DNA from: Leptolyngbyaceae cyanobacterium T60_A2020_046
GTDB taxonomy: Bacteria; Cyanobacteriota; Cyanobacteriia; Phormidesmidales; Phormidesmidaceae
Direction of reading: 5' to 3'
DNA: 64,000 bases
Assembly (NCBI GenBank): GCA_015272155.1
Contig: JACYME010000159.1
Coordinates: 1-64,000 of the forward strand
In this document: positions 9,776 through 48,998 of the stretch, one piece after another
Layout of the letters: each line of letters opens with the position of its first letter
Position numbering within the stretch: position 1 is the stretch's first letter
The notes under the pieces: model-generated
Seen by the model: the letters and a program-made list of their open reading frames with translations, nothing else
Told to the model about the DNA's origin: nothing
Databases searched by the model: none
Program-made: the position numbers and the translations under genes

Positions 9776-9917
9776 GCCGAAGAATTCAGGCGGGAAAAGT
9801 GGGGACAGTCGGCGATCGCAAATCGACGGGCGATTGCCCACCCCAAGACGGCGCGACCCCCACGGTGCTCGACAGTATGTTCTATTTTAGGGAGTGCGCA
9901 CCGTGGGGAGGCATGTC

Positions 9918-11711: not shown

Positions 11712-12661
11712 CGACCCCGGACGCCACGATCTCGATCTCACCCCTGCCGGCCCTCGACCCCTGCGATCTCACATCCTTGGGCGAGCAGCGGTGCTGGCGG
11801 TGGCGCGGCTGGCGGGTGCGCTATACCGTGCTTCGGGCGAGCCAGCCCAGCCATAATCTGCCCCTGGTCTTACTGCACGGGTTTGGGGCCAGCCTGGAAC
11901 AATGGCGCGACAATTTGGGGCCGTTGGCCCGCGATCGCACTGTCTATGCGCTGGACTTGCTGGGCTTTGGCGCATCCCAAAAGGCCGCGATCGCCTTCAA
12001 TACCAATCTGTGGCGATCACAGGTGGCGGAATTTTGCCACACCTTTATCGGTCAGCCCGTGGTGCTGGTGGGGCATTCCCTGGGGGCGTTGGTGGCGTTG
12101 ACCACAGCGGTTGAGTCGCCCGCGCTGGTCAGCCATTTGGTATTGCTAACCCTGCCCGCCGCCCGCGAAGAACTGCTTTCAGGCTGGGTCGAAACCCTAT
12201 CGCGCCTGGCGGAGCGCGCCTTTTCCACACCGCTGCTGATTCGTCCCCTGTTTGCCTGGGTGCGTCAGCCCTGGGTGATTCGTGGGGCGCTGGGCAGCAT
12301 TTACCAGGTGCGCGATCGCGTGGATGATGGCTTGGTGCGCCAGTTTGTGGAGCCCACCCGCGATCGCGGTGCCGCCCGCACCCTCTGTTATTTGGTGCGA
12401 TCGCGCACGGACGAGCACTTCACGCCCCAAACCCAAGCCTTGGTGCCCCAAATTACCCAGCCAACGCTGCTGCTCTGGGGTCAGCGCGATCGGGTCATTC
12501 CCCTGCGCTGGGGCCAGCGCCTTGCCCCGCTCAATCCGCGCGTCACCCTCGTCGAGGTGCCCGAGGCGGGTCACTGCCTCTATGACGAATACCCAGAGCA
12601 GATCAATCACCACATCCAAGACTGGCTAGCAACGGTCGAACCTGCCGGGGCAGAGGGTTAG
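11708..12661 (+). CDS. Alpha/beta-hydrolase fold protein
   Basis: A 317-aa protein with the full serine hydrolase set. There is an oxyanion HGFGAS loop near residue 60, a nucleophile elbow GHSLGA near residue 122, an aspartate in GQRDRVIP near residue 262 and a histidine in AGHCLYDE near residue 292. Such enzymes hydrolyse esters or related bonds; the substrate cannot be told from sequence. Its ATG overlaps the stop of the MscS gene (ATGA), which implies translational coupling. Its own stop overlaps the stop of the convergent ubiD gene by four bases. Confidence 0.9.
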   Translation: MTTPDATISISPLPALDPCDLTSLGEQRCWRWRGWRVRYTVLRASQPSHNLPLVLLHGFGASLEQWRDNLGPLARDRTVYALDLLGFGASQKAAIAFNTNLWRSQVAEFCHTFIGQPVVLVGHSLGALVALTTAVESPALVSHLVLLTLPAAREELLSGWVETLSRLAERAFSTPLLIRPLFAWVRQPWVIRGALGSIYQVRDRVDDGLVRQFVEPTRDRGAARTLCYLVRSRTDEHFTPQTQALVPQITQPTLLLWGQRDRVIPLRWGQRLAPLNPRVTLVEVPEAGHCLYDEYPEQINHHIQDWLATVEPAGAEG

Positions 12662-14169
12662 CAAATGTCGTAGCCAAACAGGTTGGGGTTGACATCGCTT
12701 AGATTGAGGTCGGCCAGGCCGTACTCGGCCCAGCGGCGATCGACCAGCACCGCCGTGTCGGGATCGGGGGTGAGTTCATCGCTCCAGGGGCGATCGGTTT
12801 CGGGATAGACCTTGGTGGTGGCGTCGATGCCCATGCGGCTGCCGAGGCCGGGTTTCTCGGTGGCAAAGTCGAGGCGATCGAAGGGATTTTCGGGCAGGAT
12901 GAACACGTCGCGGGCGGGGTCTACCTTGGAGGTGACGGCCCACATCACCTGGCGCGGGTCGCGAATGTTGATGGACTTGTCCACCACAATGACGAATTTT
13001 GTATAGGTGAACTGGGGCAGCGCTGTCCAAAAGGCGAAGGCGGCGCGGCGGGCCTGCCCCGGATAGGCTTTGTCGATGGAGAGGATTGCGGCCTTGTAGC
13101 TCAGGGCTTCCATCGGCAGGAAAAAATCGATGATTTCTGGCACCTGCATCCGCAAAATGGGGGTGTAGATGCGGTTGAGGGCGAGGGCCATCATGGCGTC
13201 TTCCTTAGGCGGGCGACCGCTGAAGGTGGTCAGGTAGACCGGGTCTTTGCGGTGGGTCATGCCCTGGAAGCGGATCAGTGGCGCGGTGTCGCGCACGGGG
13301 CCGTAGTAGCCGATATGGTCGCCTGCGGGGCCGTCGATCGCGGTTTCACCGGGGGTAATGGTGCCCTCCAGCACGATTTCTGAGGCGGCGGGCACTTCCA
13401 GGTTGACGGTTTTGCACTTCGCGAGGTGGACGCCCTGGCCGCTGTAGAGTCCAGCAAAGAGCCATTCTGACAAATCCACGGGCAGGGGCGTTGCGGCGGC
13501 CAAAATCAGCAACGGGTCAACGCCGAGGGCGATCGCGACTTCGAGTTTTTCGCCTCGGGCGGCGGCCTTACGGAGGTGACGGCTAGGGCCACGCACAGAC
13601 AACCACTGCACCGTCATGGTGCTTTTGGATTGGAGTTGGAGGCGATAGACGCCAACGTTGGGCACCTGGGTTTCAGGATCTTTGGTGACCATGAGGCCCA
13701 GGGTCATGACGCGATCGGCGTCGCCGGGGTAGACGCGCAGTAGGGGCAGGCGGGTGAGGTCAACGGCCTCGTCCTTGAGAACAACCTGGTGACAGGCGGG
13801 AAACAGGTCGCGATCGGGCTTGGCTTTCACCACGTCAAACAGCGCCTTGGCGAGGTCGATCGCTTGGGAGAGGGTTTTGGGCGGGCGGGGCTGGTACAGC
13901 AGCGCCAGCTTTTGGCCGATCGCTTCGAGTTCCTCTGGCTTGTCCATGCCAAAGGCCCAGCAGACGCGCTCTAGGGTGCCGAGGGTGTTGATGGCGAGGG
14001 GCATGTCGGCCCCTTTGACGTTTTCAAACAGCAGGGCGGGGCCGCCGGAAAGCAGCAGGCGGTTGGCAATTTCGGCCACTTCCAGGTCGGGATCGACCGG
14101 GGCTGTGATGCGCCGTAGTTGGCCGCGCTCTTCCAGTAGCTTCAAAAAACCGCGCAAGTCCCGAGTCAT
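12658..14169 (-). CDS. ubiD: UbiD-family decarboxylase
   Basis: A 503-aa protein that fits along its length the UbiD family of prenylated-FMN decarboxylases. Conserved stretches include VTKDPETQVPNVGVYRLQ, QWLSVRGPSRH, DGPAGDHIGYYGP and PILRMQVPEIIDFFLP. In bacteria UbiD decarboxylates 4-hydroxy-3-polyprenylbenzoate in ubiquinone synthesis. Cyanobacteria make plastoquinone instead, where a UbiD homologue is thought to serve the equivalent step. The cofactor needs a UbiX partner, which is not in this window. It is convergent with the hydrolase gene. Confidence 0.93.
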   Translation of the reverse strand: MTRDLRGFLKLLEERGQLRRITAPVDPDLEVAEIANRLLLSGGPALLFENVKGADMPLAINTLGTLERVCWAFGMDKPEELEAIGQKLALLYQPRPPKTLSQAIDLAKALFDVVKAKPDRDLFPACHQVVLKDEAVDLTRLPLLRVYPGDADRVMTLGLMVTKDPETQVPNVGVYRLQLQSKSTMTVQWLSVRGPSRHLRKAAARGEKLEVAIALGVDPLLILAAATPLPVDLSEWLFAGLYSGQGVHLAKCKTVNLEVPAASEIVLEGTITPGETAIDGPAGDHIGYYGPVRDTAPLIRFQGMTHRKDPVYLTTFSGRPPKEDAMMALALNRIYTPILRMQVPEIIDFFLPMEALSYKAAILSIDKAYPGQARRAAFAFWTALPQFTYTKFVIVVDKSINIRDPRQVMWAVTSKVDPARDVFILPENPFDRLDFATEKPGLGSRMGIDATTKVYPETDRPWSDELTPDPDTAVLVDRRWAEYGLADLNLSDVNPNLFGYDIC

Positions 14170-14340
14170 GGTTAAAGAAATGTAAAGCGTGCTCTAGGTT
14201 CATTATGTCGGATTGCGCGATCGCCCGGACGAGGGACCCCGGTGAATCGCGATCGCGCGGTTCCCACGACCCTTAACACGAGCTTTACCCTGGGGTTAGG
14301 ATGCACTTCTATGATGGAGAAACGTGATCCAAGTCGCTGG

Positions 14341-15033
14341 ATGGTTGGGATGCGTAGGCTTTGGATTGGGGTAGGGGCGATCGCGCTGGGCGTCGCAATG
14401 ACAGGCTGTGGCGGTGGCCTCAACATGGCTGCCGTGGAAGCGGAGATCAAGGCCAGCATTGAGAACCAGGGGCGACGCCTGACCCTGCAATCGGTGCAGT
14501 GCCCCAACGCCGTGCCCCGCCAGGCCAATCGCTACTTCCGCTGTGTGGGGACGATTCGCGGCGGCGGCGAGTTCACCATTAACGTGATGCAGCAAGACAA
14601 CCAGGGCACGCTGGACTGGGACATTCCAAACTCTCAGGTGATTTTGAACTTGGTCAAGGTCGAGTCCGCCATTGAGCAGGGCTTGGCCCAAGCCGTCGGG
14701 CGTCGGGCGGTGGTGGACTGTGGTGCGGTCTATCGCGCCAATCAGCCTGGGGAGATGTTTGAGTGTCAGGTGGTGGGTGGCGTGGTGACTGGCTCAGACC
14801 GGATCGATCGCGTGGTGGTGCGCATGACCCCAGAGGGCGATGTGAACTGGTATGAACTGCGCGACCCGATCGCGGCGGCTCCAAGCGGTGCAGCCTCAGC
14901 TCCCACAACCGAAGCCACCCCAACCAGCGAAACCACTGCGCCCGGAGCCACCGGGGCTGCTGTGCAACAGAAGCAGCGCGTGGTGGGCACCCGCGAGGTG
15001 TCGCGTCCTCGCGTTCCCAACGACAGCGATTAG
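14341..15033 (+). CDS. DUF4333-like lipoprotein
   Basis: Starting at the ATG at 14341 or 14350 gives a clean lipoprotein signal: MRRLW, a hydrophobic core, then a lipobox ending TGC and a glycine run. An in-frame start exists further upstream at 14242 but would put the signal internally. The mature part carries two similar units with paired cysteines (VQCPN...YFRCVGT and VVDCGAV...FECQVVGG), in the style of DUF4333 domains. The C-terminal 60 residues are rich in Ala, Pro and Thr. It is probably anchored in the outer or plasma membrane; function unknown. Confidence 0.7.
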   Translation: MVGMRRLWIGVGAIALGVAMTGCGGGLNMAAVEAEIKASIENQGRRLTLQSVQCPNAVPRQANRYFRCVGTIRGGGEFTINVMQQDNQGTLDWDIPNSQVILNLVKVESAIEQGLAQAVGRRAVVDCGAVYRANQPGEMFECQVVGGVVTGSDRIDRVVVRMTPEGDVNWYELRDPIAAAPSGAASAPTTEATPTSETTAPGATGAAVQQKQRVVGTREVSRPRVPNDSD

Positions 15034-15079
15034 CCCTAAAGCCGTCGGGATAAAAACTCAGTTTCTGCCAAGGCTGATT

Positions 15080-15688
15080 CACCTTACGGTGTTTCGCCCT
15101 GGCTTTATCACGGGCAACAGTCACACCGGAGCAACCAATTTGCAAGGCTTTCTCTCGCGATCGCTGGTGGCCTGCATTCAACTGGGAACCTCTCCTGATT
15201 TGGTCAACGTCAAAAATCAGGTGGTCACGGTGGACTACGCTAGTCGGGCCATTCTGTACCTGTCGCCACAGCCCGACGCGATCGGCGGCACTTTCCACAT
15301 TACGCCGTGGTCGCCCGCCCGTGACTTCGCCTGGAATGATCTGTTTGCCTGGGTGCAGGACTATGGCTATTCCCTCCAGCGGCTCGACTACAGCACCTGG
15401 AAGGCTAAGCTCTCGCTCCAGTGCCGCCACGACCCCAACAACGCCCTTTATCCTTTACTCCCCTTCCTCAATGAGAAAATCTACGCGCAAACGCTGACGA
15501 TTTTGGAGCATTACCAAAACACGGCGGATTTTGCTTGCAGCGCCGCGATCGCCGCCCTGCAAGGAAGCGGAATTCACTGCCCGGTGGTAAATCGGCAAAT
15601 GATTTACACCTATCTCTACACCTATCTCGATGCCTTTGGGCCGCAGGTGGGGCTGCCCCAACCTCTCTCCGTGTCGTTACTGGCCTAA
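15080..15688 (+). pseudogene. C-terminal remnant of a thioester reductase (NRPS/PKS/CAR-type SDR) domain
   Basis: From about 15080 the frame reads TVFRPGFITGNSHTGATNLQ, then CIQLGTSPDLVN, VTVDYASRAILYLS and GGTFHITP. This is the second half of an extended short-chain dehydrogenase of the kind that ends nonribosomal peptide synthetases and carboxylic acid reductases. The NAD(P)-binding Rossmann half and any adenylation or carrier domain are absent. The upstream part of the frame overlaps the lipoprotein gene and is unrelated. About 200 of the usual ~400 residues remain, with no start codon in a fitting place, so I treat it as a truncated gene. Confidence 0.7.
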
Positions 15689-15853
15689 CTCAGGTCTCAC
15701 ATTAGGCGAAAAGGGGATGGTGTTGTCAACATGGCATGCTATCCCCAGTCTTGCCGCCGGACACACTTAGGTGAGGAGGACGTGCGATCGCAGGATTCAC
15801 GAATCCTGTTCTGGCTCAGATGTTGCCAATTCCGGCTGTAAATCTGTCACGCA

Positions 15854-16303
15854 TCAGGTGGCAAACAGTTGACCATCAATATCGGGGAAGGCTTTGAACT
15901 CGATCGCGTTGCCGCTTGGATCGCGAAAAAACATTGTTGCCTGTTCACCGGGCTGTCCCTGAAAACGAACATGGGGCTCGATGATGAAGGATACTGCCGA
16001 CGTTCTGAGACGATCGGCCAACTGCTGCCATTCCGTCAGGGTCAACACCACCCCAAAGTGCGGCACGGGCACATCGTGACCGTCCACAGGGTTGCTGGGG
16101 CGCTGGGGCGGCATTTGTTCAGGAGCCACCACGTGACACACCAATTGATGCCCAAATAAATCAAAATCGACCCACGTTTTGGCACTGCGCCCTTCCCGAC
16201 AGCCCAGCACCCCCCCATAAAAAGCGCGCGCCGCCGTCAAATCCTGAACCGGAATCGCCAGGTGAAACGGGGGCCGAGGTCTTGATTTCATGCCAGTCTC
16301 CAT
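15854..16303 (-). CDS. VOC (glyoxalase/dioxygenase superfamily) protein
   Basis: A 149-aa protein with the betaalphabetabetabeta pattern of vicinal oxygen chelate proteins. It begins [22 protein letters not shown] and ends [15 protein letters not shown]. Likely metal ligands are H at about residue 20, H near 81 (VPHFGVV) and E near 137. A second start codon four residues in (16291) is equally good. Members include glyoxalase I, dioxygenases and fosfomycin-resistance proteins, and the sequence does not decide between them. Confidence 0.88.
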
Positions 16304-16735
16304 GTCTCTTAAATCCTGCGTGTGGCGGTTCTGTTCAACTCAGAAGTCTCCCTCCCCGGTTGAAGGTGCCACCTTGAACCGTAAACTTTGCCCCTTGAAC
16401 CCTATCCATCGTGAATCGTGGGGATAATTAACACCGTCCGCTAGTTGTCAAAGGGGGGCGGATAATCTCGACCCAAGTTCTGACGGGGGTTACGGCGCAG
16501 ATGCGATCGCATGTTAAGCCCGCGTGATGGAAGCGATCCCCACTTTATATAATGAAGGTGTTCATAGAATATTCGGCGCGGTGTAACGGAGATCGCCGAA
16601 TTCGTGCCCCGGTATGTGTCCCTCACCACGCTCCATTCTAAAGGGATGCAGGCCGTTGAGTTCCAGATCGTGTCGGCACGATTTTCCATCGCGTCTCAGG
16701 CGACACCAGCCCGTTTGTGTCGGCAAGGAGGCTTT
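16304..16735. other. Intergenic region upstream of the universal stress gene
   Basis: A 432-base spacer between two divergent genes. An open frame runs through it into the universal stress gene, but its first 44 codons resemble no protein. I see no tRNA, repeat or convincing hairpin. The promoters of both neighbours must lie here. Confidence 0.4.
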
Positions 16736-25062: not shown

Positions 25063-26694
25063 TTAAGCACTATTGCCTTCAACGACAAACTCTAGCAACC
25101 GTCCGTGGGTACTGCCAAAGCGGAGTTGGGCACCCGGTTGCAGCACGATTTCCTGCCGATGGACGTGTTTCCAGCCTTCGTGGGCCTGACACAGCGTGCC
25201 ATAGCGAGAATAGTCTCGCAGGTAGTAGGTGGTTTCAACGGTGGTGCTGCCCGGTGAAGCGAAACCCTGGCGGCAGAAAATCTCCGCATGTTTGCTCGAA
25301 ACCCACGGTTCGGGAATCACTAAATCATTGTCGGGCAGACGACCCACCCGCATTAGCCCACCATAGATGGGCCACACCAACTGGGGATCATCCACGGCAC
25401 GAATGGCGGCAAGTTGCCGTGGGCCAGGGCTATCCCCTGGTAGGCGGGTGATATCGATATCTGGAGCAGCCAACAGCCGCCCATCAAAGTCGGGGTGCAT
25501 ATAGAGGACGGGCAGCGTCCACGCGGGCTGGTTGAATTTGTAAAGGGTCAAAAGCTGCTGACGCGCGAGCGCCATCGCCCGATCCACAGGTTCCTGCTCG
25601 GCCAGCGCTTGAGAAAAGACCTGAATGAACGTCAGGGCCTCATTGTCGGCAATGGAATCGCGCATGGCAATAACCGCAGGCACACCGTGGTGCAACAGCA
25701 CCTCTGCCAAACTGCTTCGGGGAATCGTCTGGCTCTGTTGTTGGTCAGGCTGTGCGCCCCAGCAGGTATTAAACACCGCTAGCTTGACCCGGCAACGGGT
25801 TAACACTTGGGCGAGTTCCGTCCCATTCAGGGGAGATTTTTCCTTGAGAAACAGCAACCCTCCATCTGGGGCAGGCACCCCATGCCCACCGTAGAAAAAA
25901 ATGTTGTAGTTGCCGCGTTCCAGCGCTTTGATGAGGTCTGCGGGCGAAGGTTCGAGCAACACATCCACCTGGCACGGGGCGGCCACACTGCGATGCCGCA
26001 GGCTAGAGGTCACTTCTCCTTGCAAAATGCTTTTGAGCATAGCCGCTTCAGATTCGAGCTGGAGGCGCTGGGTCGCGCTGGCATCGGCGGCACTGGCTTC
26101 GCTCTGGCCCAACACGAGCAATACCTTGAGGGCGCGATCGAGGTCTAGGGCAGCCAAAGGCTCGACCTCGCTGGTGGTGCGGCTAAAGCGAACACTTTCG
26201 CGCAGGGAGAATGCCTGTTGCCCTGGCTGGGGCTGCATCATCTCCCAGGGGATGGCAATGAGCTGAGGATCGCGAATGTCGAGGCAGAACTGTAGCGGCA
26301 CATCTTGCCCGATCGCGATGCCTAGGCTTTGGTTCAAGCTGCTTTGGATTGGGCCATCAAAGAGCCACTGCCAGAGCCGTACGCCTAGGGTCTGCATCAA
26401 GCGGCTGGTGTAGCCCCGGGGAGTAGTATCGCCGCTGTCATCGGCCCCTGCCTCGCTGACAAACGGAGGAACGTAGCTGGCGGGCACGTGGGGAACGTCG
26501 GGCAAGCCACGCAGGGCAAAGTACTGGAGCCAAGTGTGCCAAAGCTGCTGAATGTCCTCTGTCCAAATGCGATCGTGGTGGACATAGCCGCCAGGATAGG
26601 GCGACTCCACGACCCAGACGGCATAGTGATTATCGTTGAATGACGACAATCGCTCGATGGCAAGCCGGAAGCGAATCGGGTCAGAAGCAGGCAT
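25063..26694 (-). CDS. CHAT caspase-like domain fused to a C-terminal FHA domain
   Basis: The start at 26694 gives 543 aa; a frame extension to 26805 would overlap the phosphatase gene upstream. Residues about 130-410 form a CHAT peptidase domain with the catalytic pair H271 (NIFFYGGHG) and C311 (LAVFNTCWG). Residues about 444-540 form an FHA domain (MRVGRLPDNDLVIPEPWVSSKHAEI), which binds phosphothreonine peptides. The first 120 residues are unassigned. There is no signal peptide, so it acts in the cytoplasm. It lies 46 bases downstream of a PP2C phosphatase gene on the same strand, suggesting protease recruitment controlled by phosphorylation. That link is inference. Confidence 0.88.
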   Translation of the reverse strand: MPASDPIRFRLAIERLSSFNDNHYAVWVVESPYPGGYVHHDRIWTEDIQQLWHTWLQYFALRGLPDVPHVPASYVPPFVSEAGADDSGDTTPRGYTSRLMQTLGVRLWQWLFDGPIQSSLNQSLGIAIGQDVPLQFCLDIRDPQLIAIPWEMMQPQPGQQAFSLRESVRFSRTTSEVEPLAALDLDRALKVLLVLGQSEASAADASATQRLQLESEAAMLKSILQGEVTSSLRHRSVAAPCQVDVLLEPSPADLIKALERGNYNIFFYGGHGVPAPDGGLLFLKEKSPLNGTELAQVLTRCRVKLAVFNTCWGAQPDQQQSQTIPRSSLAEVLLHHGVPAVIAMRDSIADNEALTFIQVFSQALAEQEPVDRAMALARQQLLTLYKFNQPAWTLPVLYMHPDFDGRLLAAPDIDITRLPGDSPGPRQLAAIRAVDDPQLVWPIYGGLMRVGRLPDNDLVIPEPWVSSKHAEIFCRQGFASPGSTTVETTYYLRDYSRYGTLCQAHEGWKHVHRQEIVLQPGAQLRFGSTHGRLLEFVVEGNSA

Positions 26695-26740
26695 TAGTAG
26701 AGGGCGAGGGTAGCAAAGCTGCCATAGGGAAACCAAGAAA

Positions 26741-29047
26741 TCATAAGGCGGTGTCCATACACATTCCCTGTTGGGTTGGGGACGTGTCAAGTGTTTGGCG
26801 GGCAATTGGGCGAAGGGCGCGATCGCGAATCCAGCCTTCGTCTCCCGGCTGGGCGCGGGGCGTCATGTCTGCAGAGGGCGGTGAAGCGTCTGGCGCTGTG
26901 TCGGGGGTTGGTTCTGGGCTGAGGGCAGGAACTTGGCACACCCGAAGCTGTACCCATTGCTCATCATCTGGGGTGGTCTGGCGGGTCATGACCTCGACGA
27001 CGGTACCCACGGGCAGAGATCGCCGCATAACGGCCTCGGCCCCTGGCGGCGTTGCCCCTAGCAATAGATGGGCTTCGGCCCCATTGCTCGCCTCAGGAAG
27101 GACTTGGATTTGCAGCACATCACCCACAGCCAACTCACCCAGGGGGCGCGCCCCTGTCCCAGGGGGGACAGCATCGGGGGAGAGGGAGCCGCTGGGAGGT
27201 GAGGTTACCGTCTCCGGTGTGGAGTTGCGCGATCGCCACAGCCACCCGCCCCCGCCCAGAATCCCCACCAGCAATAGCAGCCACAGCAGGCGGAGAATGC
27301 CTCCGGTCGAATTACGGCGCGATCGCGGGGGGCGAACAGTCTGCGGAGGGACTGTTGAACCCAGGCCGGGAACCGATGTTCCAGAGCGGGTGGGCGCGAT
27401 CGCCGTCGCCCCCACAGAAGAACCCGTGGCCGCTTCCCAGTTCCCGATGTCGGCGGAGAGCGTCGGCAGGGGGGGGCTGCTGGCTGGCGTTGTGACCCGG
27501 ATGAGGCTCACCGTAACGTTATCGTGGCCATTGTGGGTGTTTGCCAACCGAATCAGGCGCTTGCCTAGGGCCTCGACCGAGCCACTGCCTTGAACAGCGG
27601 AGCGGAGTTCCGTCTGCCAGAGCCGTTCCACGAGGTCGTTATCGCTCAACCCATCAGAACAGAGCAAAAACAGACCGTCCTCAATGAGGGGGTACATCTC
27701 CACCGTTGGGTGCAAAAACTGCGAGTCGCCCATGCCCAGCGCCTGCACGAGCGCCCCTGCCCCCGACTGCCCTAAGGCATCGCGGTAAAACCGATAGCCC
27801 AGCCGACTGTCGCGGGCGGCAACGTCGTCATCGAGGGTGAGCTGGCGGCAGCTATGGGGGCGAATTCGGTAGGCGCGACTGTCCCCCAAGTGGGCCAGGT
27901 ACAGCCGCGCGCCATAGACCACAACCACAACGAGGGTGGTGCCCATGCGATCGCGGGCCCGGCGCTGATCTTGATCATTTCGGGCAGAGAGTACCCGGTT
28001 CGCCTCCAGCACGGCCCGTTGTAGCCCTTCCACCAATACCGCGTGGGTCAGGTTGGGGGTAGCTGCTAGTGGGTTCAGCACTCGAGTCACGACTTCGATC
28101 GCCAGATTCGAGGCCACATCTCCGCCCTGATGCCCGCCAATGCCATCACACACCACGATGATTGGGGCGGGGGTTTGGGCCGCATGTTGAGCTTGCACAA
28201 TGCGATGATCCACCGTTCCACTGGGGGGATAGCAGGCATCTTCGTTACGCTGACGGGTTGGCCCTTGGTCAGAAAAAGTGGCGAATTCTACCGATCGCGT
28301 TGCTGTGGCGGTCAATGTTTCAAGCGCATGGGTGAGCGATTGTAGCAGCCCCTCCGCCGAGAGCGTTTGTGCCATCAGCTGCTCCGTCAAGGCCGTAAGA
28401 TAGCTGCGAATTTCAGGAGCCGATTTAGGCAGCAGCGCTCGCCATCGCTGGCCCAAATCCGCAAGGCTTGGGGACGCATCAGAGTGTTGCAAAGACAAGA
28501 GCCGCACGTCCTCGCCATCAACCCGCACCAGATTCCACAGCAGCAGGCTAGTAGCTACGGACTCATCCCGCAGGGGTTGCCACAGTCGCGCGATTTGCCA
28601 AAGCCAGCTCAACTGATGCAAGGCAGACTGGTGGGGCCATGCCTCGGGCAGGGTCGGCATGGGCGTGGCAGAATGCTGGGCCGTGTCAAAGTTGGGCTTT
28701 AGGGGCGCATCCTCCAACAGCAGCAGAGGCTCGCCACTGTGAGGGGACACAACCTGGGTAAAGGGCCGAGGGATGGAGCGATGGAAGGGCGCGAGGTGCA
28801 GAAAGGGTAGGGCGATCGCGGCGGGATTTTCAACGGGCAGCGGTGACTCAGCCGGATCGAGATCCAGCAGCAGGGACGGCTTAATCACCTCATAGCGGCT
28901 TGCCAGCACCGTTCCCACCTCTAGGGCAGAGGCCGTTGACCCAATGGCCCACAGATAGCGACGCACCAGCGGCCAGTGGCAAGACTTACACATGTCGCGA
29001 TCGCGCTCATTCGCAACCCGACACGCTGGGTTAGAGCAGTGAATCAC
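26741..29047 (-). CDS. PP2C-family Ser/Thr phosphatase with N-terminal zinc ribbon and membrane anchor
   Basis: A 768-aa protein. It begins with a four-cysteine zinc ribbon (C4, C9, C20, C23). Residues 60-245 are an unassigned helical region. The PP2C domain spans about 252-518, with RNEDA, DGIGGHQGG (D301), LGDSRAYR, SDGLSD (D465) and HDN (D509) as metal-binding motifs. One transmembrane helix (about 583-604) is followed by an SH3-like segment (about 636-745). PP2C enzymes remove phosphates from Ser/Thr. It is the first gene of a likely two-gene operon with the CHAT-FHA gene. Confidence 0.92.
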   Translation of the reverse strand: MIHCSNPACRVANERDRDMCKSCHWPLVRRYLWAIGSTASALEVGTVLASRYEVIKPSLLLDLDPAESPLPVENPAAIALPFLHLAPFHRSIPRPFTQVVSPHSGEPLLLLEDAPLKPNFDTAQHSATPMPTLPEAWPHQSALHQLSWLWQIARLWQPLRDESVATSLLLWNLVRVDGEDVRLLSLQHSDASPSLADLGQRWRALLPKSAPEIRSYLTALTEQLMAQTLSAEGLLQSLTHALETLTATATRSVEFATFSDQGPTRQRNEDACYPPSGTVDHRIVQAQHAAQTPAPIIVVCDGIGGHQGGDVASNLAIEVVTRVLNPLAATPNLTHAVLVEGLQRAVLEANRVLSARNDQDQRRARDRMGTTLVVVVVYGARLYLAHLGDSRAYRIRPHSCRQLTLDDDVAARDSRLGYRFYRDALGQSGAGALVQALGMGDSQFLHPTVEMYPLIEDGLFLLCSDGLSDNDLVERLWQTELRSAVQGSGSVEALGKRLIRLANTHNGHDNVTVSLIRVTTPASSPPLPTLSADIGNWEAATGSSVGATAIAPTRSGTSVPGLGSTVPPQTVRPPRSRRNSTGGILRLLWLLLLVGILGGGGWLWRSRNSTPETVTSPPSGSLSPDAVPPGTGARPLGELAVGDVLQIQVLPEASNGAEAHLLLGATPPGAEAVMRRSLPVGTVVEVMTRQTTPDDEQWVQLRVCQVPALSPEPTPDTAPDASPPSADMTPRAQPGDEGWIRDRALRPIARQTLDTSPTQQGMCMDTAL

Positions 29048-40635: not shown

Positions 40636-43600
40636 ATGACGTTCATCCCCCTAAAGTTCATGACCTTAATGTCTCGCTGGGCCATTGTCAATGGCGTGTG
40701 TTTGAGCCTCAACGGCCTATGGTGGGTGCCCAGCGCCACCGCACAGCCGATTCAGGCCGCCGACGATGGAACGGGAACGGTCATCAATCGCCAGGGGAAT
40801 GACACCCGGATTACGGGCGGCGCGCGATCGCAAGACGGGGCCAACCTGTTTCACAGTTTTACGGAATTCAACGTAGGGCGGGGGCAGTCGGCAACGTTTT
40901 TGGCTGATCCATCGGTGCTGAATATTTTGGGCCGAGTGTCGGGGGGCAATGCCTCGGTCATCAATGGCCTGTTGCAGGTGTCGGGCTCGGGGGCCAACCT
41001 GTTTCTGATCAACCCGTCGGGTATTTTGTTTGGCCCCGATGCAGCGTTGAACCTAGAGGGCGGGTTTGCCGCGATCGCGGCGGATGGCGTCACCTTTGGC
41101 TCCGGCACCTTTGGCACCCTGGGCACCCCAGACTACAGCGCCCTTGTGGGTAACCCGACGGGCTTTGTATTCAGCGGCGCTACCCCCGGCAGCGTGGTGA
41201 ATGCGGGCAACTTGGCGGTTGATCCGGGGCAGTTTTTGCTGCTGGCGGGGGGTCAGGTGATCAACACCGGCACTCTGGCCGCGCCCGGAGGCGATGTGGT
41301 GATTGCTGCCGTGGACGGGGGAAATTACGTGCGCATTTCCCAGGATGGGCTGCTGCTGAACCTGGAACTGGAAGCTCTGCCCGCTGGCGCAACGGAGGCG
41401 CAGCCCTTTACCCCACAATCCTTGCCGGAGCTGCTCACGGGGAATGCGATCGCAGAAGCCACCGGAGTCACGGTCAACCCTGACGGCACGGTCACCCTCA
41501 CCGGATCCGAGCTGCCGATTCCCACCACGGCGGGCACTGCGATCGCCACCGGCACCCTCACCACCGACTCCGCGACAGGCACAGGCGGATCCATCACCGT
41601 CCTGGGCGAAACCATCGGCCTCCTCGCCGCCACCCTCAGCGCCTCTGGTTCCAACGGTGGCGGCACCATTCGCGTTGGTGGCGACGTTCAGGGTACAGGG
41701 CCACTGCCCACCGCCACAACGGTTTATCTCGATCGCGACAGCACCCTTCGCGCCGACAGTTGGGTTGACGGCGTGGGCGGCAACATCATCGCTTGGTCAG
41801 AGGCTGCCACGCGCATTGATGGCACCCTCAGTGCCCGGGGCGGCGCAGACGGCGGCGACGGCGGCTTTATTGAAACCAGCAGCCGAGGCTTTTTGAACGT
41901 CATCCGCGCCCCCGATGTGGGGGCGGCAGCGGGCAATGGTGGCCTGTGGCTACTCGACCCCAACAGCATTCAACTGGTGGATGGGCTGCCAGACAGCAAC
42001 TTCACCCAAGCGGGCAATGTGTTTGCGCCGTTGGACGAGTCCGCCACCTCCATCATTGATATGGATCTGCTGAATGCCGCCCTGGATAGCGGCGACGTGC
42101 AGGTGGTGACGAATCCCTTTGATGCGGTCTTTACCGATGGCAATATCCGCGTGGTGGATGAATTTAACTTCACCAGTGCAGAGGGCAACACGCTATTTTT
42201 GCGAGCCGTGGGCGATATTCAAATCGAGAAAGACCTGATTTCCGGGGGCGTCAACTTCGACTTCCAGGCCGACAGCGATGGCAACAACAACGGCCAGTTG
42301 ATTAGCGATGGCGCTTTAGACACAGGCGGCAATGTCACCCTGCGCGGCAGCAGCGCCACCGATCACGGCGTGGGCATCTTCGGCTCCATTTTCGCGGGGG
42401 GAGACGTGCTGATTGTCGGCAACAGCGGTCAAGGGGCGGGCGTGACGATCTCGCAAAGTACGCTCTTGGGGCGGAACGTGACGGTGCGCGGCACCTCCCA
42501 GACGGGGCCGGGCATTGAGATGTTTGACGGAACCTCCCTGAGTGCCTCGCGGGATGTTGTGCTCAATGGACGGAGCAACAGTGGCATTGGGGTGAATCTT
42601 TCCAATAGCTCTATCACCGCAGGGGAGATCGCGATCGCGGGACGCAGCGGCAGTAATACCGGGGTGTTGCTGGGCGACCTTTTTGACTACTCCGCTTTTC
42701 AGGGGTTGACGGTGGTGGGGCGCAGTGGCTCTGGCCGCGCGATTGAATCCACCGAGGGACTGTTTACCCAAGGCAGCGACATCGCGCTGATCAGCGCTGG
42801 TGGCAACATCGTGGTGCCGTGGATTGATGCCAGCGGCCCTTCTTTCTCTGAAGATCCGCCCTCTGAAGAGCCGCCCTTTGAAGGGCCATTCCCGCCTGAA
42901 GGCCCACCCTCTTCCCCAATTCCCGGCGGTGCGATTCTCATCTCAGCACTCCAAGACTTTGTCCGCATCACCGAAGCTGGCCCCTCGGGCTTCAGTCTCT
43001 TAACGTCCGGCGGATCCCCAATTACGGTGATTCACGGCGGCAATGGTCAGGTGCCCTTTGTGGTGGGCAATGCCTCGGTGAATGGTACGGCGGCGGACAT
43101 AACCAGCGGCAACACGGGGATTCAGCCCAACCGATCCTTTTTCAACAGCGAGATAATCGGCAATATCGCCATTCTGACGGCGAGTGGAGCCGATGAGCCC
43201 CAAATTGAACGGCCCGATCGCCGCATTCCCAACCGCAATAATAACGGCGGCGGGGGTGGGGTCATCGACATCAGCACCTGGTATGAGGTAGAGCAGGAAT
43301 TCACCAGCGAATACACGACCTATTTTGGGCGATCGGAGGTGCCACCGCCAGATTATGAGTTCATTCGCGGCACTCTAGAACGCCTGTCGCTGGAATTGGG
43401 GGTCGTGCCGGGGGTGGTCTATGCCCGATTTGTGACGCCAGAGGATTTGGGTCGGGTGCCGGGGATCACCCCAGGGCCGGATGATGTGCTGGAACTGATG
43501 TTGGTGACTCCGGCGGGCAATCCGATGATCTTCCGTACGCCGGGGGTGACGCGCGCCAAAATACTCGCCGTGACCCAACAGCTCCAGCGCGAGTTGACCG

Positions 43601-44517
43601 ATCGCACCCGGCGTCGTCAAACCACCTATCTGGAACTATCGCAACAGCTCTATGGCTGGCTGATTGCGCCAATGACGGATGAGCTTGAGGCCCAGGGTAT
43701 TGGTCATCTGTCGTTTGTGTTGCCAGCGGGGCTGCGATCGCTGCCCTTGGCCGTCCTTCACGATGGTCAACAGTTTGTGATCGAGCGCTACACCATTAGC
43801 CTGATGCCCAGCCTCAGCCTGACGGATATTTTGACTGTTAAGAACCTGAGCACGTCGCCGCTGTTGGCGATGGGTGCGTCAGAATTTTCTGACCAGCCCA
43901 ACCTGCCCGCCGTGCCCTTAGAACTGGAACTGATTTTGGGCGATCGCGATGGCGAATCGAGCCTCAACAAAGGCTTTACCCCCGAAAACCTAGTGCGGCT
44001 GCGGCAGGCCGGGGGCTATGCCCTGCTGCACCTCGCCACCCACGGCGAATTTCGCAGCGGCGGCCCCAGCAACTCCTACATTCAGTTTTGGGATCAGCGC
44101 ATTACCCTGAGCGAAGTGCGCCGCCTCCAGCTTGACACGCCGCCCCTGGAACTGCTGGTGATGAGCGCCTGCCGCACGGCCCTAGGCGACACCTCCGCAG
44201 AGCTGGGGTTTGCGGGGCTGGCAGTGCAAACGGGGGGGCGATCGGCCCTGGCGACCCTGTGGCAGGTGAGCGACCTGGAAACCGCTGGCCTGATGGCCGA
44301 GTTTTACACCCAACTGGGCACCACCGCCTATAAGGCCAAGGCGCTGCAACAGGCCCAGTTGGCCATGCTGCGGGGCGAGGTGACGATTCAAAACGGCCAA
44401 ATCATCTGGACAGGGGGCCAACAATCCTTAGTCAGTGGTCTGCGGCAGTCCGCAGTGGATGATACCACCCATCCCTACTATTGGGCGTCCTTCACGCTGG
44501 TGGGAAGCCCCTGGTAA
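40636..44517 (+). CDS. Two-partner secretion passenger (TpsA) with C-terminal CHAT domain
   Basis: A 1293-aa exported protein. An N-terminal signal is followed by the haemagglutinin-type TPS domain (about 40-260: GTVINRQGNDTRITGG, the NPSGILFG motif), which directs export through a TpsB pore. Residues about 300-700 are glycine/serine/asparagine-rich beta-helix repeats. A proline/glutamate linker (SEDPPSEEPPFEGP) sits at about 735-760. The last ~340 residues form a CHAT caspase-like domain with the catalytic pair H1136 (HLATHGEF) and C1179 (VMSACRTALG). Starts at residues 9 or 12 are alternatives. The TpsB gene follows 12 bases after the stop. Confidence 0.9.
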   Translation: MTFIPLKFMTLMSRWAIVNGVCLSLNGLWWVPSATAQPIQAADDGTGTVINRQGNDTRITGGARSQDGANLFHSFTEFNVGRGQSATFLADPSVLNILGRVSGGNASVINGLLQVSGSGANLFLINPSGILFGPDAALNLEGGFAAIAADGVTFGSGTFGTLGTPDYSALVGNPTGFVFSGATPGSVVNAGNLAVDPGQFLLLAGGQVINTGTLAAPGGDVVIAAVDGGNYVRISQDGLLLNLELEALPAGATEAQPFTPQSLPELLTGNAIAEATGVTVNPDGTVTLTGSELPIPTTAGTAIATGTLTTDSATGTGGSITVLGETIGLLAATLSASGSNGGGTIRVGGDVQGTGPLPTATTVYLDRDSTLRADSWVDGVGGNIIAWSEAATRIDGTLSARGGADGGDGGFIETSSRGFLNVIRAPDVGAAAGNGGLWLLDPNSIQLVDGLPDSNFTQAGNVFAPLDESATSIIDMDLLNAALDSGDVQVVTNPFDAVFTDGNIRVVDEFNFTSAEGNTLFLRAVGDIQIEKDLISGGVNFDFQADSDGNNNGQLISDGALDTGGNVTLRGSSATDHGVGIFGSIFAGGDVLIVGNSGQGAGVTISQSTLLGRNVTVRGTSQTGPGIEMFDGTSLSASRDVVLNGRSNSGIGVNLSNSSITAGEIAIAGRSGSNTGVLLGDLFDYSAFQGLTVVGRSGSGRAIESTEGLFTQGSDIALISAGGNIVVPWIDASGPSFSEDPPSEEPPFEGPFPPEGPPSSPIPGGAILISALQDFVRITEAGPSGFSLLTSGGSPITVIHGGNGQVPFVVGNASVNGTAADITSGNTGIQPNRSFFNSEIIGNIAILTASGADEPQIERPDRRIPNRNNNGGGGGVIDISTWYEVEQEFTSEYTTYFGRSEVPPPDYEFIRGTLERLSLELGVVPGVVYARFVTPEDLGRVPGITPGPDDVLELMLVTPAGNPMIFRTPGVTRAKILAVTQQLQRELTDRTRRRQTTYLELSQQLYGWLIAPMTDELEAQGIGHLSFVLPAGLRSLPLAVLHDGQQFVIERYTISLMPSLSLTDILTVKNLSTSPLLAMGASEFSDQPNLPAVPLELELILGDRDGESSLNKGFTPENLVRLRQAGGYALLHLATHGEFRSGGPSNSYIQFWDQRITLSEVRRLQLDTPPLELLVMSACRTALGDTSAELGFAGLAVQTGGRSALATLWQVSDLETAGLMAEFYTQLGTTAYKAKALQQAQLAMLRGEVTIQNGQIIWTGGQQSLVSGLRQSAVDDTTHPYYWASFTLVGSPW

Positions 44518-44529
44518 CATCAAGCAAAT

Positions 44530-46545
44530 TTGACGCGATCGCAAAAAGTGGTTGACTCAGGTGAACAACGGAGCAGGTGTGAGGAGCAGGCAAACGGTAT
44601 GGACATGAGGCAGCGACGTCTGTGGGCAGTGGTGTCTGGTTTGGCCCTAGCCAGCCTCAGTGAAGTCGCGATCGCAGCAATGCCCGACGGTTACCCCGTT
44701 TCCCCAACGGGAGACGCTGGGGATCTCCCAGTTGCAGAAACCCCTGAGATGGCGCGATCGCAGGCTTCCCTACTGTCCGAGGAATCGAGTGCTGAATCGC
44801 TAGAAAATGCTGTGTCTCCGATTTCAACGGTGCCCCCCCGCCCCAGTCCTGAACTGGCGCTGCAGCCCCAATTTTCGCCCCATGCCGTTCAGGATTCGGT
44901 AACTGCACCCAGGCTAGACACTGCCGCGATCGCTCCCCCACCCCCTGCGGACATTGAAGCATGGCTGGCCCAGGTTGATCCGGGGCGCGATCGCTTCCCC
45001 GACGATGCCCCCCCGGCCCCGCTGCCCCCTGAGGCTCCCCTCGACACCCCTCGCCCCACCCCGCTACCCTCCGGCCCAGGCAGCGACGTATCGTTTTTCG
45101 TCGCAGATATTCAGGTCACTGGCAGCACCCGCTTCGATGACATCACCTTAGAAGGTGCAGTTGCCCCCTTCGAGGAACGCACCGTTACCCTGGCCGAATT
45201 GCAGCAGGCAGCGGATGCCATCACCCAGCTTTACCTCAACGAGGGCTATATCACCTCCCGCGCGATTTTGAACACGCAAACGGTGGTGGATGGCGTGGTG
45301 CAAATTCAAGTCATTGAAGGATCCCTCGAAGCCATTGAGGTGGAGGGCACAGAGCGCCTGCAAGCCTACGTGCGCGATCGCGTGGCTTTGGGCGCAGGCA
45401 CCCCCCTCAACCAAGCTGATTTGGAAGATCGGCTGCGGCTGTTGCGCGGCGATGTGCTTTTTGAGTCGGTGGAAGCCAGCCTGCGGGCAGGCAGCGACGT
45501 GGGCAAAAGCCTGCTGATTGTGCGCGTGGTGGAAGCCCGTCCGCTCCAGGGTTCCATTTCCTCCGACAACTACTCGCCCAGCTCCGTTGGCGATGTTCGC
45601 TTCACCGGGCGGCTGGAGTATTTAAACCCTGCCGGATTTGGCGATCGCATTTTCGCCTCCGCCAGTTGGACCGATACCCAAGGCTCCAAGGTCTATGAGC
45701 TGGGCTATTCAGTGCCCCTCAACCCCCGCGACGGCACCCTCACTCTACGCCTCAACCCCAACGAATTTCGCATTACGGATTCGAGTCAGCCCATCTTTGG
45801 CCTCAACGTTCGGGGCGAAACGGATATTTACGAACTCAGCTTCCGCCAGCCTCTCCATCGCACGCCCCGCGATGAGTTTGCCCTGTCGGCGGGGCTGCGT
45901 TATCGCACGGGGTCTACCCTCGTCGGCGACGGTTTTATCACCAACGCCTCCCGAACCACCATCTTCAGCTTTGGGCAAGATTACATTCACCGGGGCATCA
46001 AAGGCGCGATCTCGGCGCGATCGCAGTTCCGCCTCGGGCGCGATGTCTCAGACGTAGTGAACTTTGAAAACACCTTCCTGAGCTGGATCGGCCAAATTCA
46101 GCGGGTGCAGCTCCTCACCCCAGACAATCTGCTGGTGATCCAAGGCGATGTGCAGCTTGCCAGCACCAACTTACCCGGCTCCGAGCAATTCTTCATCGGC
46201 GGCGGCCCCTCCGTGCGGGGCTACGCCCAAAATCAGCGCTTTGGGGACAATGGCATTCGCCTCTCCATCGAAGACCAAATCACCCTCACCCGCAACGACG
46301 TCGGGAAAGCGCTCTTTCGCCTCACGCCCTTTCTAGAGGGCGGCTATGTGTGGAACTCCGGCAATGCCGCCAACGTTGCCGACAACAACTTTCTGTTGGG
46401 CACGGGCTTCGGCCTTCTCGTCACCCCCCTGCCTGACCTCAGCGCTCGATTTGATCTCGCCATTCCCCTCGTTGATGTGCGCGAGTTGGCCACCGATCCG
46501 GTGCGCGGCGCACGGTTTTACTTCAGCGTTGGCTATCAGTTCTAA
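44530..46545 (+). CDS. TpsB-type outer-membrane transporter (FhaC/ShlB family)
   Basis: A 671-aa frame; a GAGGAG site suggests the true start at 44599 (648 aa, MDMRQRRLWAVVSGLALASL signal peptide). After a proline-rich region (about 60-180) come POTRA domains (FFVADIQVTGSTRFDDITLE, then YLNEGYITSRAILNTQ and VEGTERLQAYVRDRV). A 16-strand beta-barrel follows, with the FIGGGPSVRGY motif (VRGY loop) near residue 553 and a terminal FYFSVGYQF ending in phenylalanine. It should export the CHAT-bearing TpsA encoded just upstream. The two genes are surely one operon. Confidence 0.93.
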   Translation: MTRSQKVVDSGEQRSRCEEQANGMDMRQRRLWAVVSGLALASLSEVAIAAMPDGYPVSPTGDAGDLPVAETPEMARSQASLLSEESSAESLENAVSPISTVPPRPSPELALQPQFSPHAVQDSVTAPRLDTAAIAPPPPADIEAWLAQVDPGRDRFPDDAPPAPLPPEAPLDTPRPTPLPSGPGSDVSFFVADIQVTGSTRFDDITLEGAVAPFEERTVTLAELQQAADAITQLYLNEGYITSRAILNTQTVVDGVVQIQVIEGSLEAIEVEGTERLQAYVRDRVALGAGTPLNQADLEDRLRLLRGDVLFESVEASLRAGSDVGKSLLIVRVVEARPLQGSISSDNYSPSSVGDVRFTGRLEYLNPAGFGDRIFASASWTDTQGSKVYELGYSVPLNPRDGTLTLRLNPNEFRITDSSQPIFGLNVRGETDIYELSFRQPLHRTPRDEFALSAGLRYRTGSTLVGDGFITNASRTTIFSFGQDYIHRGIKGAISARSQFRLGRDVSDVVNFENTFLSWIGQIQRVQLLTPDNLLVIQGDVQLASTNLPGSEQFFIGGGPSVRGYAQNQRFGDNGIRLSIEDQITLTRNDVGKALFRLTPFLEGGYVWNSGNAANVADNNFLLGTGFGLLVTPLPDLSARFDLAIPLVDVRELATDPVRGARFYFSVGYQF

Positions 46546-47798: not shown

Positions 47799-48998
47799 CT
47801 AACGTGGGGGTGAGTCGGGGAGGCCTACGAGGGTAAATGCGGCCCAGTTGCGGGGATGGGGATATTGCTCGCGGGTTTTGAGCATCGCCTGACGAAGGGA
47901 TTGGGCGTTGTCTCGGGTTTGGGAGAGCTGGCGATAAAACTCGACCATGAGGTCGGCGGTGGGCGGTCGGGGATGGCCCGTAGGGTCACAATGACGCTAG
48001 GGACTCCGGCGGTCATGAGCGTCGCGAAAGTCCTACTACCCCATCTCCGGTGATGCGGCCCAGCCCGGTATCACAGGCACTCAGCACCACCAACTCTGCC
48101 CCGAGGGATAACTCAAGGATTTCAGCGGCGGTCAGGAGGCCATCTTGGCCTTCACCGGGGGCCAAGGCCAAGGCTCCGGGCAGATCACGGAAGCCCGAAT
48201 CTTGGGGGCTGCCATAGTCCAGCAGGCCGTGGGTGGCGAAGTGGATCAAGCGGGCGGTGCTGGCGGCTTGTTTGATGCGGCGTTCGGTGGCGGCGTTGCC
48301 CAACAGGGGCTAAGTGTTGAATAGATCCGCGATCGCGCTGGCCTCTTGCTGGGCACCGGGCAGGGTTGGCAGGGGCTGGCGCGTCTGCTGCTGGGGCGAC
48401 CAAATGGCGGGCATGGTGGGGTTGCCCACAATCAACACCTCGTCTCGATGGGTGAGGCGGCGATCGCGGGCCTGTTGAGCCAGGCCCAACACCTGGATTG
48501 ACAGAGCTGTCACCAGGGTGTGGTGGTCGATCAGGTCGCTACCGTCGGCTCGCTTCAGCGCCGGGCAGGGCACCTGAAATAAGCTGCCCTGGGGAATGAT
48601 GACGACGCGATCGCTGGGATTTTGAGGCAACAGTTTGAGGCAACAGATCGATCGCGATCGTCAACTGCCCGTGCTGAAAGACTTGTACCCCGCCAACGTA
48701 GCGCTGTTCAGCATTGCCCGCCCCCGCCGACGGACGTTCGAGGCTGGCCTGCGCCACCCAAGCCTCGGTTTCTCCTCCCAGGGGCGTGCCGTCCAAAGGT
48801 ATCCGGAAATACTGACCGTCGCGACCGACCTGCCGCCATTCTCCGAGGGGATAGCGATACACCTAAAACGGTGACATCAACACTGTGGCCCGCCTCAGTC
48901 GGTGCTGCTGCACCTCCAGCGGGCGATCGCACCGTTGCCACCACACACAGCATTACAATTGTTGAAACCGACCAGCCGACAACCCCGCGCATCCGCAT
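47799..48998 (-). pseudogene. Decayed exported CHAT-domain protein
   Basis: One protein is spread over frames on the minus strand. A signal peptide begins MRMRGVVGWSVSTIVMLCVV (ATG at 48998 or 48992). After a shift near 48860 comes GEWRQVGRDGQYFRIPLDG. The CHAT domain then runs through IIPQGSLFQVPCPALKRADG, LIHFATHGLLDYG (catalytic H) and AELVVLSACDTGLG (catalytic C), ending WAAFTLVGLPDSPPR at 47799. Lesions: an exact 13-bp tandem duplication at 48621-48646 shifts the frame; an amber TAG stands where LFNTxPLLGN needs one residue (about 48314); and single-base shifts lie near 48018 and 47965. The TPR region usual upstream of such CHAT domains is absent. Confidence 0.8.
48621..48646. repeat. 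Exact 13-bp tandem duplication inside the CHAT pseudogene
   Basis: TTTGAGGCAACAG occurs twice back to back (48621-48633 and 48634-48646). As 13 is not a multiple of three, the extra copy breaks the reading frame between IDLLPQ and NPSDRVVI. It looks like a slippage event and is one of the lesions that inactivated the gene. Confidence 0.9.

What the first reader, a model, noticed from the sequence alone, without database searches (positions are those of the whole stretch)
40636..46545. A CHAT caspase-like peptidase exported by two-partner secretion
TpsA passengers normally end in adhesin or toxin regions. Here a full TPS domain and beta-helix are joined through a Pro/Glu linker to a CHAT domain with both catalytic residues (H1136, C1179), and the cognate TpsB pore follows 12 bases later. 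A protease of this class at the cell surface could cleave envelope or neighbour-cell proteins, process the passenger itself, or serve self/non-self interaction. The pairing is visible in the sequence; the role is inference.
Basis: partly seen in the sequence, partly recalled or inferred. Interest (0 to 1): 0.65.

Follow-up and report, generated by a model that had tools for sequence, protein, structure and literature searches.

The report
Two-partner-secreted passenger ending in CHAT protease
A cyanobacterial gene encodes a surface-fibre-type protein exported by two-partner secretion whose tail is an apparently intact caspase/separase-like protease; this layout turns out to be common across cyanobacteria, yet I found no published description of it, and its substrate and final location are unknown.

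Summary
The 1293-aa ORF has a signal peptide, a TPS secretion domain, a beta-helical passenger and a C-terminal CHAT domain with H1136 and C1179; a TpsB gene follows. Two corrections: TpsB most likely starts at ATG 44599 (81-bp gap), not TTG 44530; and the Pro/Glu stretch lies inside the passenger, with a second linker before CHAT.

It is not an oddity of this genome. I found 79 TPS+CHAT single-ORF fusions. In 141 TPS genes from 22 cyanobacterial genomes, 32 were fused to CHAT and 38 more had a same-strand CHAT gene within 5 kb. The catalytic H and C are invariant in 57 aligned fusions. AlphaFold (pLDDT 96) matches Craspase TPR-CHAT and separase.

New here: unfused cyanobacterial TpsAs end in a module with two near-invariant cysteines (95/110), resembling the disulfide anchor of HMW1/HxuA; none of 78 fusions has it, so CHAT occupies its place. 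In the two-gene version CHAT has its own Sec signal and no TPS domain.

I favour an envelope protease at the fibre's base that processes its passenger or envelope proteins, over a delivered toxin. Export is well supported; the side of the outer membrane and the substrate are inferred.

The parts
40636..44517 (+). tpsA-CHAT gene, 1293 aa (alternative in-frame ATGs at codons 9 and 12)
40636..40743 (+). Sec signal peptide region (residues 1-36)
   Evidence: sequence, by eye
40759..41355 (+). TPS secretion domain (residues 42-240)
   Evidence: Pfam PF05860, 4.7e-39
41413..42825 (+). beta-helical passenger (about residues 260-730)
   Evidence: AlphaFold and Foldseek to EtpA/HxuA
42838..42924 (+). 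Pro/Glu-rich stretch inside the passenger (residues 735-763)
   Evidence: sequence; low confidence in the model
43186..43263 (+). Arg/Pro/Asn/Gly-rich linker before CHAT (residues 851-876)
   Evidence: sequence
43276..43632 (+). conserved N-extension of CHAT (residues 881-999)
   Evidence: alignment A1, model
43633..44508 (+). CHAT peptidase domain (residues 1000-1291)
   Evidence: Pfam PF12770, 2.2e-60; fold
44041..44043 (+). catalytic His codon, H1136
   Evidence: invariant in 57 fusions
44170..44172 (+). catalytic Cys codon, C1179
   Evidence: invariant in 57 fusions
44272..44274 (+). D1213 of LWxVSD, candidate S1 residue for a basic P1
   Evidence: invariant in 57 fusions; motif comparison with separase (PMC9729208)
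44599..46545 (+). tpsB, 648 aa from the likely ATG (TTG at 44530 is the mechanical start); POTRA_2 at 45094-45321, ShlB at 45502-46416
47817..48630 (-). decayed TPR-CHAT relic (in-frame stop and frameshift), neighbour rather than part of the system

Best explanation
The gene is a TpsA protein in which a caspase/separase-type cysteine peptidase (CHAT) forms the C-terminal module. The signal peptide takes the chain through Sec; the TPS domain engages the neighbouring TpsB; the beta-helix is threaded N-first to the cell surface; CHAT, the last part, folds at the end of the fibre. Because CHAT stands exactly where other cyanobacterial TpsAs have a two-cysteine, probably disulfide-anchoring tail, and because two-gene relatives export CHAT with Sec alone, I think CHAT most likely stays at the periplasmic side or base of the fibre. 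There it cleaves in cis (release or shortening of its own passenger) or cuts nearby envelope proteins. It probably prefers a basic P1 residue. Shown: architecture, conserved dyad, fold, widespread recurrence, absence of the Cys module in fusions, Sec signals. Inferred: peptidase activity, location relative to the outer membrane, substrate, release function.
For: Domains and order. Dyad invariant in 57 aligned fusions, with W and D of LWxVSD also invariant. CHAT model pLDDT 95.7, best PDB matches Craspase TPR-CHAT/Csx29, separase, gingipain R; passenger model matches TpsA structures. CHAT ends at the protein's last residue in 76 of 79 fusions, so there is no downstream cargo to release. Two-Cys module in 95/110 unfused TpsAs and 0/78 fusions (Fisher p 5e-38, ignoring relatedness). 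Precedents: in HMW1/HxuA a disulfide loop keeps the C-terminus periplasmic; LapG cleaves the periplasmic tail of CdrA to release it (PMC5422565). Recurrent association: 32/141 TPS genes fused, 38/109 unfused with same-strand CHAT within 5 kb against about 1.6 expected. Fused and two-gene CHATs fall in different clades, with a further TPS-TPR-CHAT fusion in L193. This genome also has a two-gene copy: TpsA at L092 13702-16455, then signal-peptide TPR-CHAT 11187-13724. All 22 sampled genomes with TPS have TpsB.
Against: No experiment. TpsB could pass CHAT through as it passes C-terminal CdiA toxins, so surface display is not excluded. A single Cys in CHAT is not specific to exported forms: CHATs without a signal peptide share it. 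Linkers are not conserved in sequence and no shared cleavage site was seen; Arg+Lys is only modestly richer in the linker than in the passenger (5.4% against 3.7%). The S1 assignment rests on a motif, not on a superposition.
Confidence: 0.42

Rival explanations
1. Surface exoprotease: CHAT passes through TpsB with the passenger, folds outside and digests extracellular or neighbouring-cell proteins, as the TPS protease LepA does.
For: TPS passengers can include proteases (LepA, PMC5422565); TpsB transports C-terminal globular domains in CDI (same review); the Pro- or Asp/Gly-rich linkers before CHAT look like extracellular spacers.
Against: Two-gene relatives have CHAT with a Sec signal but no TPS domain, so those cannot use TpsB; the CHAT stands in the place of a candidate periplasmic anchor.
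Confidence: 0.3
2. Outside-in signalling: the surface fibre senses contact or a ligand and switches CHAT on, which cuts a periplasmic or inner-membrane partner such as a CHASE2 sensor protein.
For: Two-gene TPS/CHAT loci are enriched for CHASE2 (15/38 against 5/71) and DUF928 (20/38 against 6/71); known CHATs (Craspase) are allosterically switched proteases (PMC9729208).
Against: Fused loci show little such enrichment (CHASE2 in 4/32 and 2/47); no partner gene lies next to the window gene; no ligand or substrate known.
Confidence: 0.15
3. Contact-dependent effector: CHAT is a toxin tip delivered to neighbouring cells.
For: C-terminal position matches CdiA-CT; caspase-like domains at the C-terminus of polymorphic toxins have been proposed as toxins (PMC3482391).
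Against: CHAT is the best-conserved part (61-68% against 35-49% for the helix in the nearest homologues), opposite to variable toxin tips; no immunity-type ORF between the gene and tpsB.
Confidence: 0.08
4. The CHAT domain is catalytically dead and serves as a folded plug that stops translocation and tethers the fibre in TpsB.
For: Its place is that of the candidate anchor module.
Against: The His-Cys dyad and surrounding motifs are invariant across 57 divergent fusions, which a plug would not need.
Confidence: 0.05

Closest known systems
Two-partner secretion (type Vb) TpsA/TpsB, e.g. FHA/FhaC, HMW1, EtpA, HxuA
   Same: Signal peptide, TPS domain, beta-helix fold matches, adjacent POTRA/ShlB transporter.
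   Different: Ends in a CHAT peptidase instead of a disulfide anchor (HMW1/HxuA type) or toxin tip.
LepA/LepB of Pseudomonas aeruginosa, a TPS exoprotease (PMC5422565)
   Same: Protease as a TPS passenger.
   Different: A different protease class to my knowledge (trypsin-like); LepA was not compared here.
TPR-CHAT/Csx29 of Craspase (type III-E CRISPR)
   Same: CHAT fold, best PDB match 9.2e-15; His-Cys dyad.
   Different: No TPR, no Cas7-11; exported; the position of Craspase K670 is probably Asp here, as in separase (PMC9729208).
Cyanobacterial two-gene TpsA plus Sec-exported TPR-CHAT loci (L092 in this genome; Nostoc plasmid L101)
   Same: The same two modules side by side, often with TpsB.
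   Different: CHAT is a separate protein with TPRs, from another CHAT clade; the TpsA usually keeps the two-Cys tail.
CdrA released by LapG
   Same: Proposed logic: a Cys protease acting at the C-terminal end controls the passenger.
   Different: LapG is a separate, unrelated protease under c-di-GMP control (PMC5422565); nothing of that kind is shown here.

Membership tests
TpsA (two-partner secretion exoprotein) | N-terminal TPS domain behind a signal peptide | tested here: met
   Pfam 4.7e-39; signal peptide judged by eye
TpsA (two-partner secretion exoprotein) | beta-helical passenger | tested here: met
   AlphaFold plus Foldseek to EtpA and HxuA
TpsA (two-partner secretion exoprotein) | cognate TpsB with POTRA and barrel | tested here: met
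   only strong ShlB match in the genome
TpsA (two-partner secretion exoprotein) | TpsB-dependent secretion | not testable with these tools
   needs a tpsB deletion and fractionation
CHAT peptidase (clan CD) | CHAT profile and fold | tested here: met
   2.2e-60; pLDDT 95.7 with Csx29 and separase matches
CHAT peptidase (clan CD) | His-Cys catalytic dyad | tested here: met
   H1136 and C1179, invariant in 57 fusions
CHAT peptidase (clan CD) | proteolytic activity | not testable with these tools
   needs the purified domain
CDI / polymorphic toxin | variable C-terminal tip and downstream immunity gene | tested here: not met
   CHAT is the most conserved part; tpsB follows directly
HMW1/HxuA-type disulfide-anchored TpsA | C-terminal cysteine pair | tested here: not met
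   C1179 is the only Cys of the mature protein; 0/78 fusions have the two-Cys module
Craspase TPR-CHAT | TPR domain and a type III-E Cas7-11 partner | tested here: not met
   no TPR match in the protein; neighbours are a TrkA-type protein, TpsB and a nitrilase-type gene

The most novel reading that the evidence does not exclude
A widespread cyanobacterial surface system in which a TPS fibre carries its own separase-like, Arg/Lys-specific protease at its base as a built-in release or outside-in signalling switch, replacing the disulfide anchor of ordinary TpsAs.
Probability: 0.25. Interest if true: 0.75.

Novelty: new variant of a known kind. Interest (0 to 1): 0.52.

Why it matters
The CHAT proteases with known biology that I could read about work inside the cell (Craspase; HetF as a cyanobacterial divisome component). 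Here a CHAT with an intact dyad is built into an export system, in at least 15 of 22 sampled TPS-bearing cyanobacterial genomes, and apparently joined to TPS more than once. If it controls release of surface fibres or signalling across the envelope, it would give the many 'filamentous hemagglutinin' and 'CHAT domain-containing' annotations of cyanobacteria a common function that one active-site mutant can test.

Tried and rejected
Cys depletion as a mark of export: the CHAT domain has one Cys in 78 of 79 fusions, but CHAT proteins without a signal peptide also have one, so it does not discriminate. Shared auto-cleavage site in the linker: linkers are unalignable low-complexity sequence, Arg+Lys only 5.4% against 3.7% in the passenger. 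Sequence search of PDB with the CHAT profile: no real hit; the fold search was needed. PADLOC: only a weak match in the CHAT part (BovA, 30 bits), no defence system. Promoter scan uninformative. Literature: no held paper pairs CHAT domain with two-partner secretion, hemagglutinin or CHASE2, and the caspase-homologue surveys read do not describe it; the library lacks most subscription journals. Three fusions failed a simple dyad regular expression, but alignment A1, which contains them, shows H and C invariant. Searches were errors or items not held.

Full report
What is there. The window lies in a cyanobacterial genome of 4.2 Mb in 250 contigs. ORF 40636-44517 (+) encodes 1293 residues with a signal peptide, a TPS domain (42-240, 4.7e-39) and a C-terminal CHAT domain (1000-1291, 2.2e-60). 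H1136 sits in HLATHG and C1179 in SACRT; besides C22 in the signal peptide, C1179 is the only cysteine. The downstream gene has POTRA_2 and ShlB domains. Its likely start is ATG 44599 behind GAGGAG, giving an 81-bp gap rather than 12. It is the only strong ShlB match in the genome, which holds two TPS genes.

Structure. Residues 881-1293 were predicted with the alignment of 57 sequences: pLDDT 95.7, pTM 0.94. Foldseek puts Craspase TPR-CHAT/Csx29 first (9.2e-15), then separases and gingipain R. Residues 36-880 gave pLDDT 79 with the short repeated strands of a beta-helix, matching EtpA (1.2e-20), HxuA, and the HMW1 and HpmA secretion domains. The Pro/Glu stretch (735-763) interrupts the passenger; a second linker (851-876) and a conserved N-extension precede CHAT.

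How common. A genome-contig scan returned 79 loci, 47 ORFs of which hold TPS and CHAT together; with the random sample the total is 79 fusions. H and C are invariant in 47/47 and in the 57-sequence alignment, as are the W and D of LWxVSD. In 69 genomes drawn across the phylum, all TPS matches over the cut-off lie in the window's own class. From 22 TPS-bearing genomes I fetched 120 loci: of 141 TPS genes, 32 are fused to CHAT, and 38 of the 109 unfused have a same-strand CHAT gene within 5 kb against about 1.6 expected from CHAT density. TPS genes in clusters are not independent, so the p-value is only a guide. Fifteen of the 22 genomes have a fused gene in the sample and 20 have one form or the other. 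All 22 have TpsB. Among relatives of this genome, 21 of 29 have close relatives of this CHAT. The order TPS-CHAT then TpsB recurs in G084:C367 and G078:C77 and in L014, but TpsB is usually elsewhere (within 6 kb in only 6/32 and 2/47 fusions).

Two-gene form. In this genome contig C54 (L092) carries a TpsA (13702-16455) followed at once by a signal-peptide TPR-CHAT gene (11187-13724). A Nostoc plasmid shows CHASE2, DUF928, a TpsA-type gene, TpsB, CHAT and another TpsA-type gene in a row. In the sample, such loci are enriched for DUF928 (20/38 against 6/71) and CHASE2 (15/38 against 5/71). Of 36 CHATs near TPS, 30 passed a crude signal-peptide test and at least two of the rest look like misses by eye. 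In a quick tree, fused CHATs lie almost wholly in one clade and two-gene TPR-CHATs in another, while L193 (TPS-TPR-CHAT in one protein) stands apart from the main fused clade. Several 'alone' rows in the fused clade are ORFs cut by contig ends. CHAT and TPS have thus probably been joined more than once, which argues for a functional link.

The tail swap. Unfused cyanobacterial TpsAs carry a C-terminal module of about 165 residues with two near-invariant cysteines (1.00 and 0.98 of the seed alignment), usually 73-118 residues apart: 95 of 110 have it, and many of the rest look truncated. None of the 78 fusions has it. In HMW1, and by expectation HxuA, a C-terminal disulfide loop locks the C-terminus in TpsB on the periplasmic side, and the periplasmic tail of CdrA is cut by LapG to release the adhesin (PMC5422565). 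The module is therefore a candidate disulfide anchor, and CHAT stands in its place. The disulfide itself is not shown.

Mechanism. The chain passes Sec and engages TpsB (established knowledge of TPS). CHAT, the last part made, either folds in the periplasm and stays at the base of the fibre or follows through the pore. The tail swap and the Sec-only CHAT partners tilt me to the periplasm or base, with cis processing/release or cleavage of envelope proteins. D1213 of LWxVSD would correspond to separase D2151, which recognises P1 Arg and is Lys in Craspase (PMC9729208); that correspondence is by motif and from memory of separase, so a basic P1 preference is a lead, not a result. A delivered toxin is unlikely: CHAT is the best-conserved part, nothing follows it, and no immunity-type gene is present.

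Novelty. Both parts are known and TPS proteases exist (LepA), so this is a new variant of a known kind. Database annotation names such proteins by one domain or the other. No held paper links CHAT domains with two-partner secretion or hemagglutinin, but the library is partial, so absence of a description is not proven.

Noticed in passing
window 47817-48630 (-): Decayed CHAT gene, 54% identical over the first stretch to the TPR-CHAT of L092 in this genome, with an in-frame stop and a frameshift; it lies 1.3 kb downstream of tpsB on the other strand.
   Followed up: partly
window 25063-26805 (-): A separate CHAT protein with a C-terminal forkhead-associated (FHA) domain and no obvious signal peptide.
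   Followed up: no
window 7643-9841 (-): Ser/Thr kinase fused to a CHASE2 sensor domain.
   Followed up: no
L092:11187-16455: Same genome: a TpsA overlapping a Sec-exported TPR-CHAT gene; this TpsA lacks the common two-Cys module but has a C-x17-C pair near its C-terminus.
   Followed up: partly
unfused TpsAs in L104-L223, e.g. L104:2943-5420: Conserved ~165-residue C-terminal module (..GC..SSFVVTGRGGLP.NP...EAQGW...LVA...C) with no Pfam or NCBIfam match in the one member scanned; candidate cyanobacterial TpsA disulfide anchor.
   Followed up: partly
L152:9596-13921, L174:9533-13924, L161:6026-10408: TPS domain and TpsB in one ORF (about 1450 aa), each with a TPR-CHAT gene overlapping its end.
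   Followed up: no
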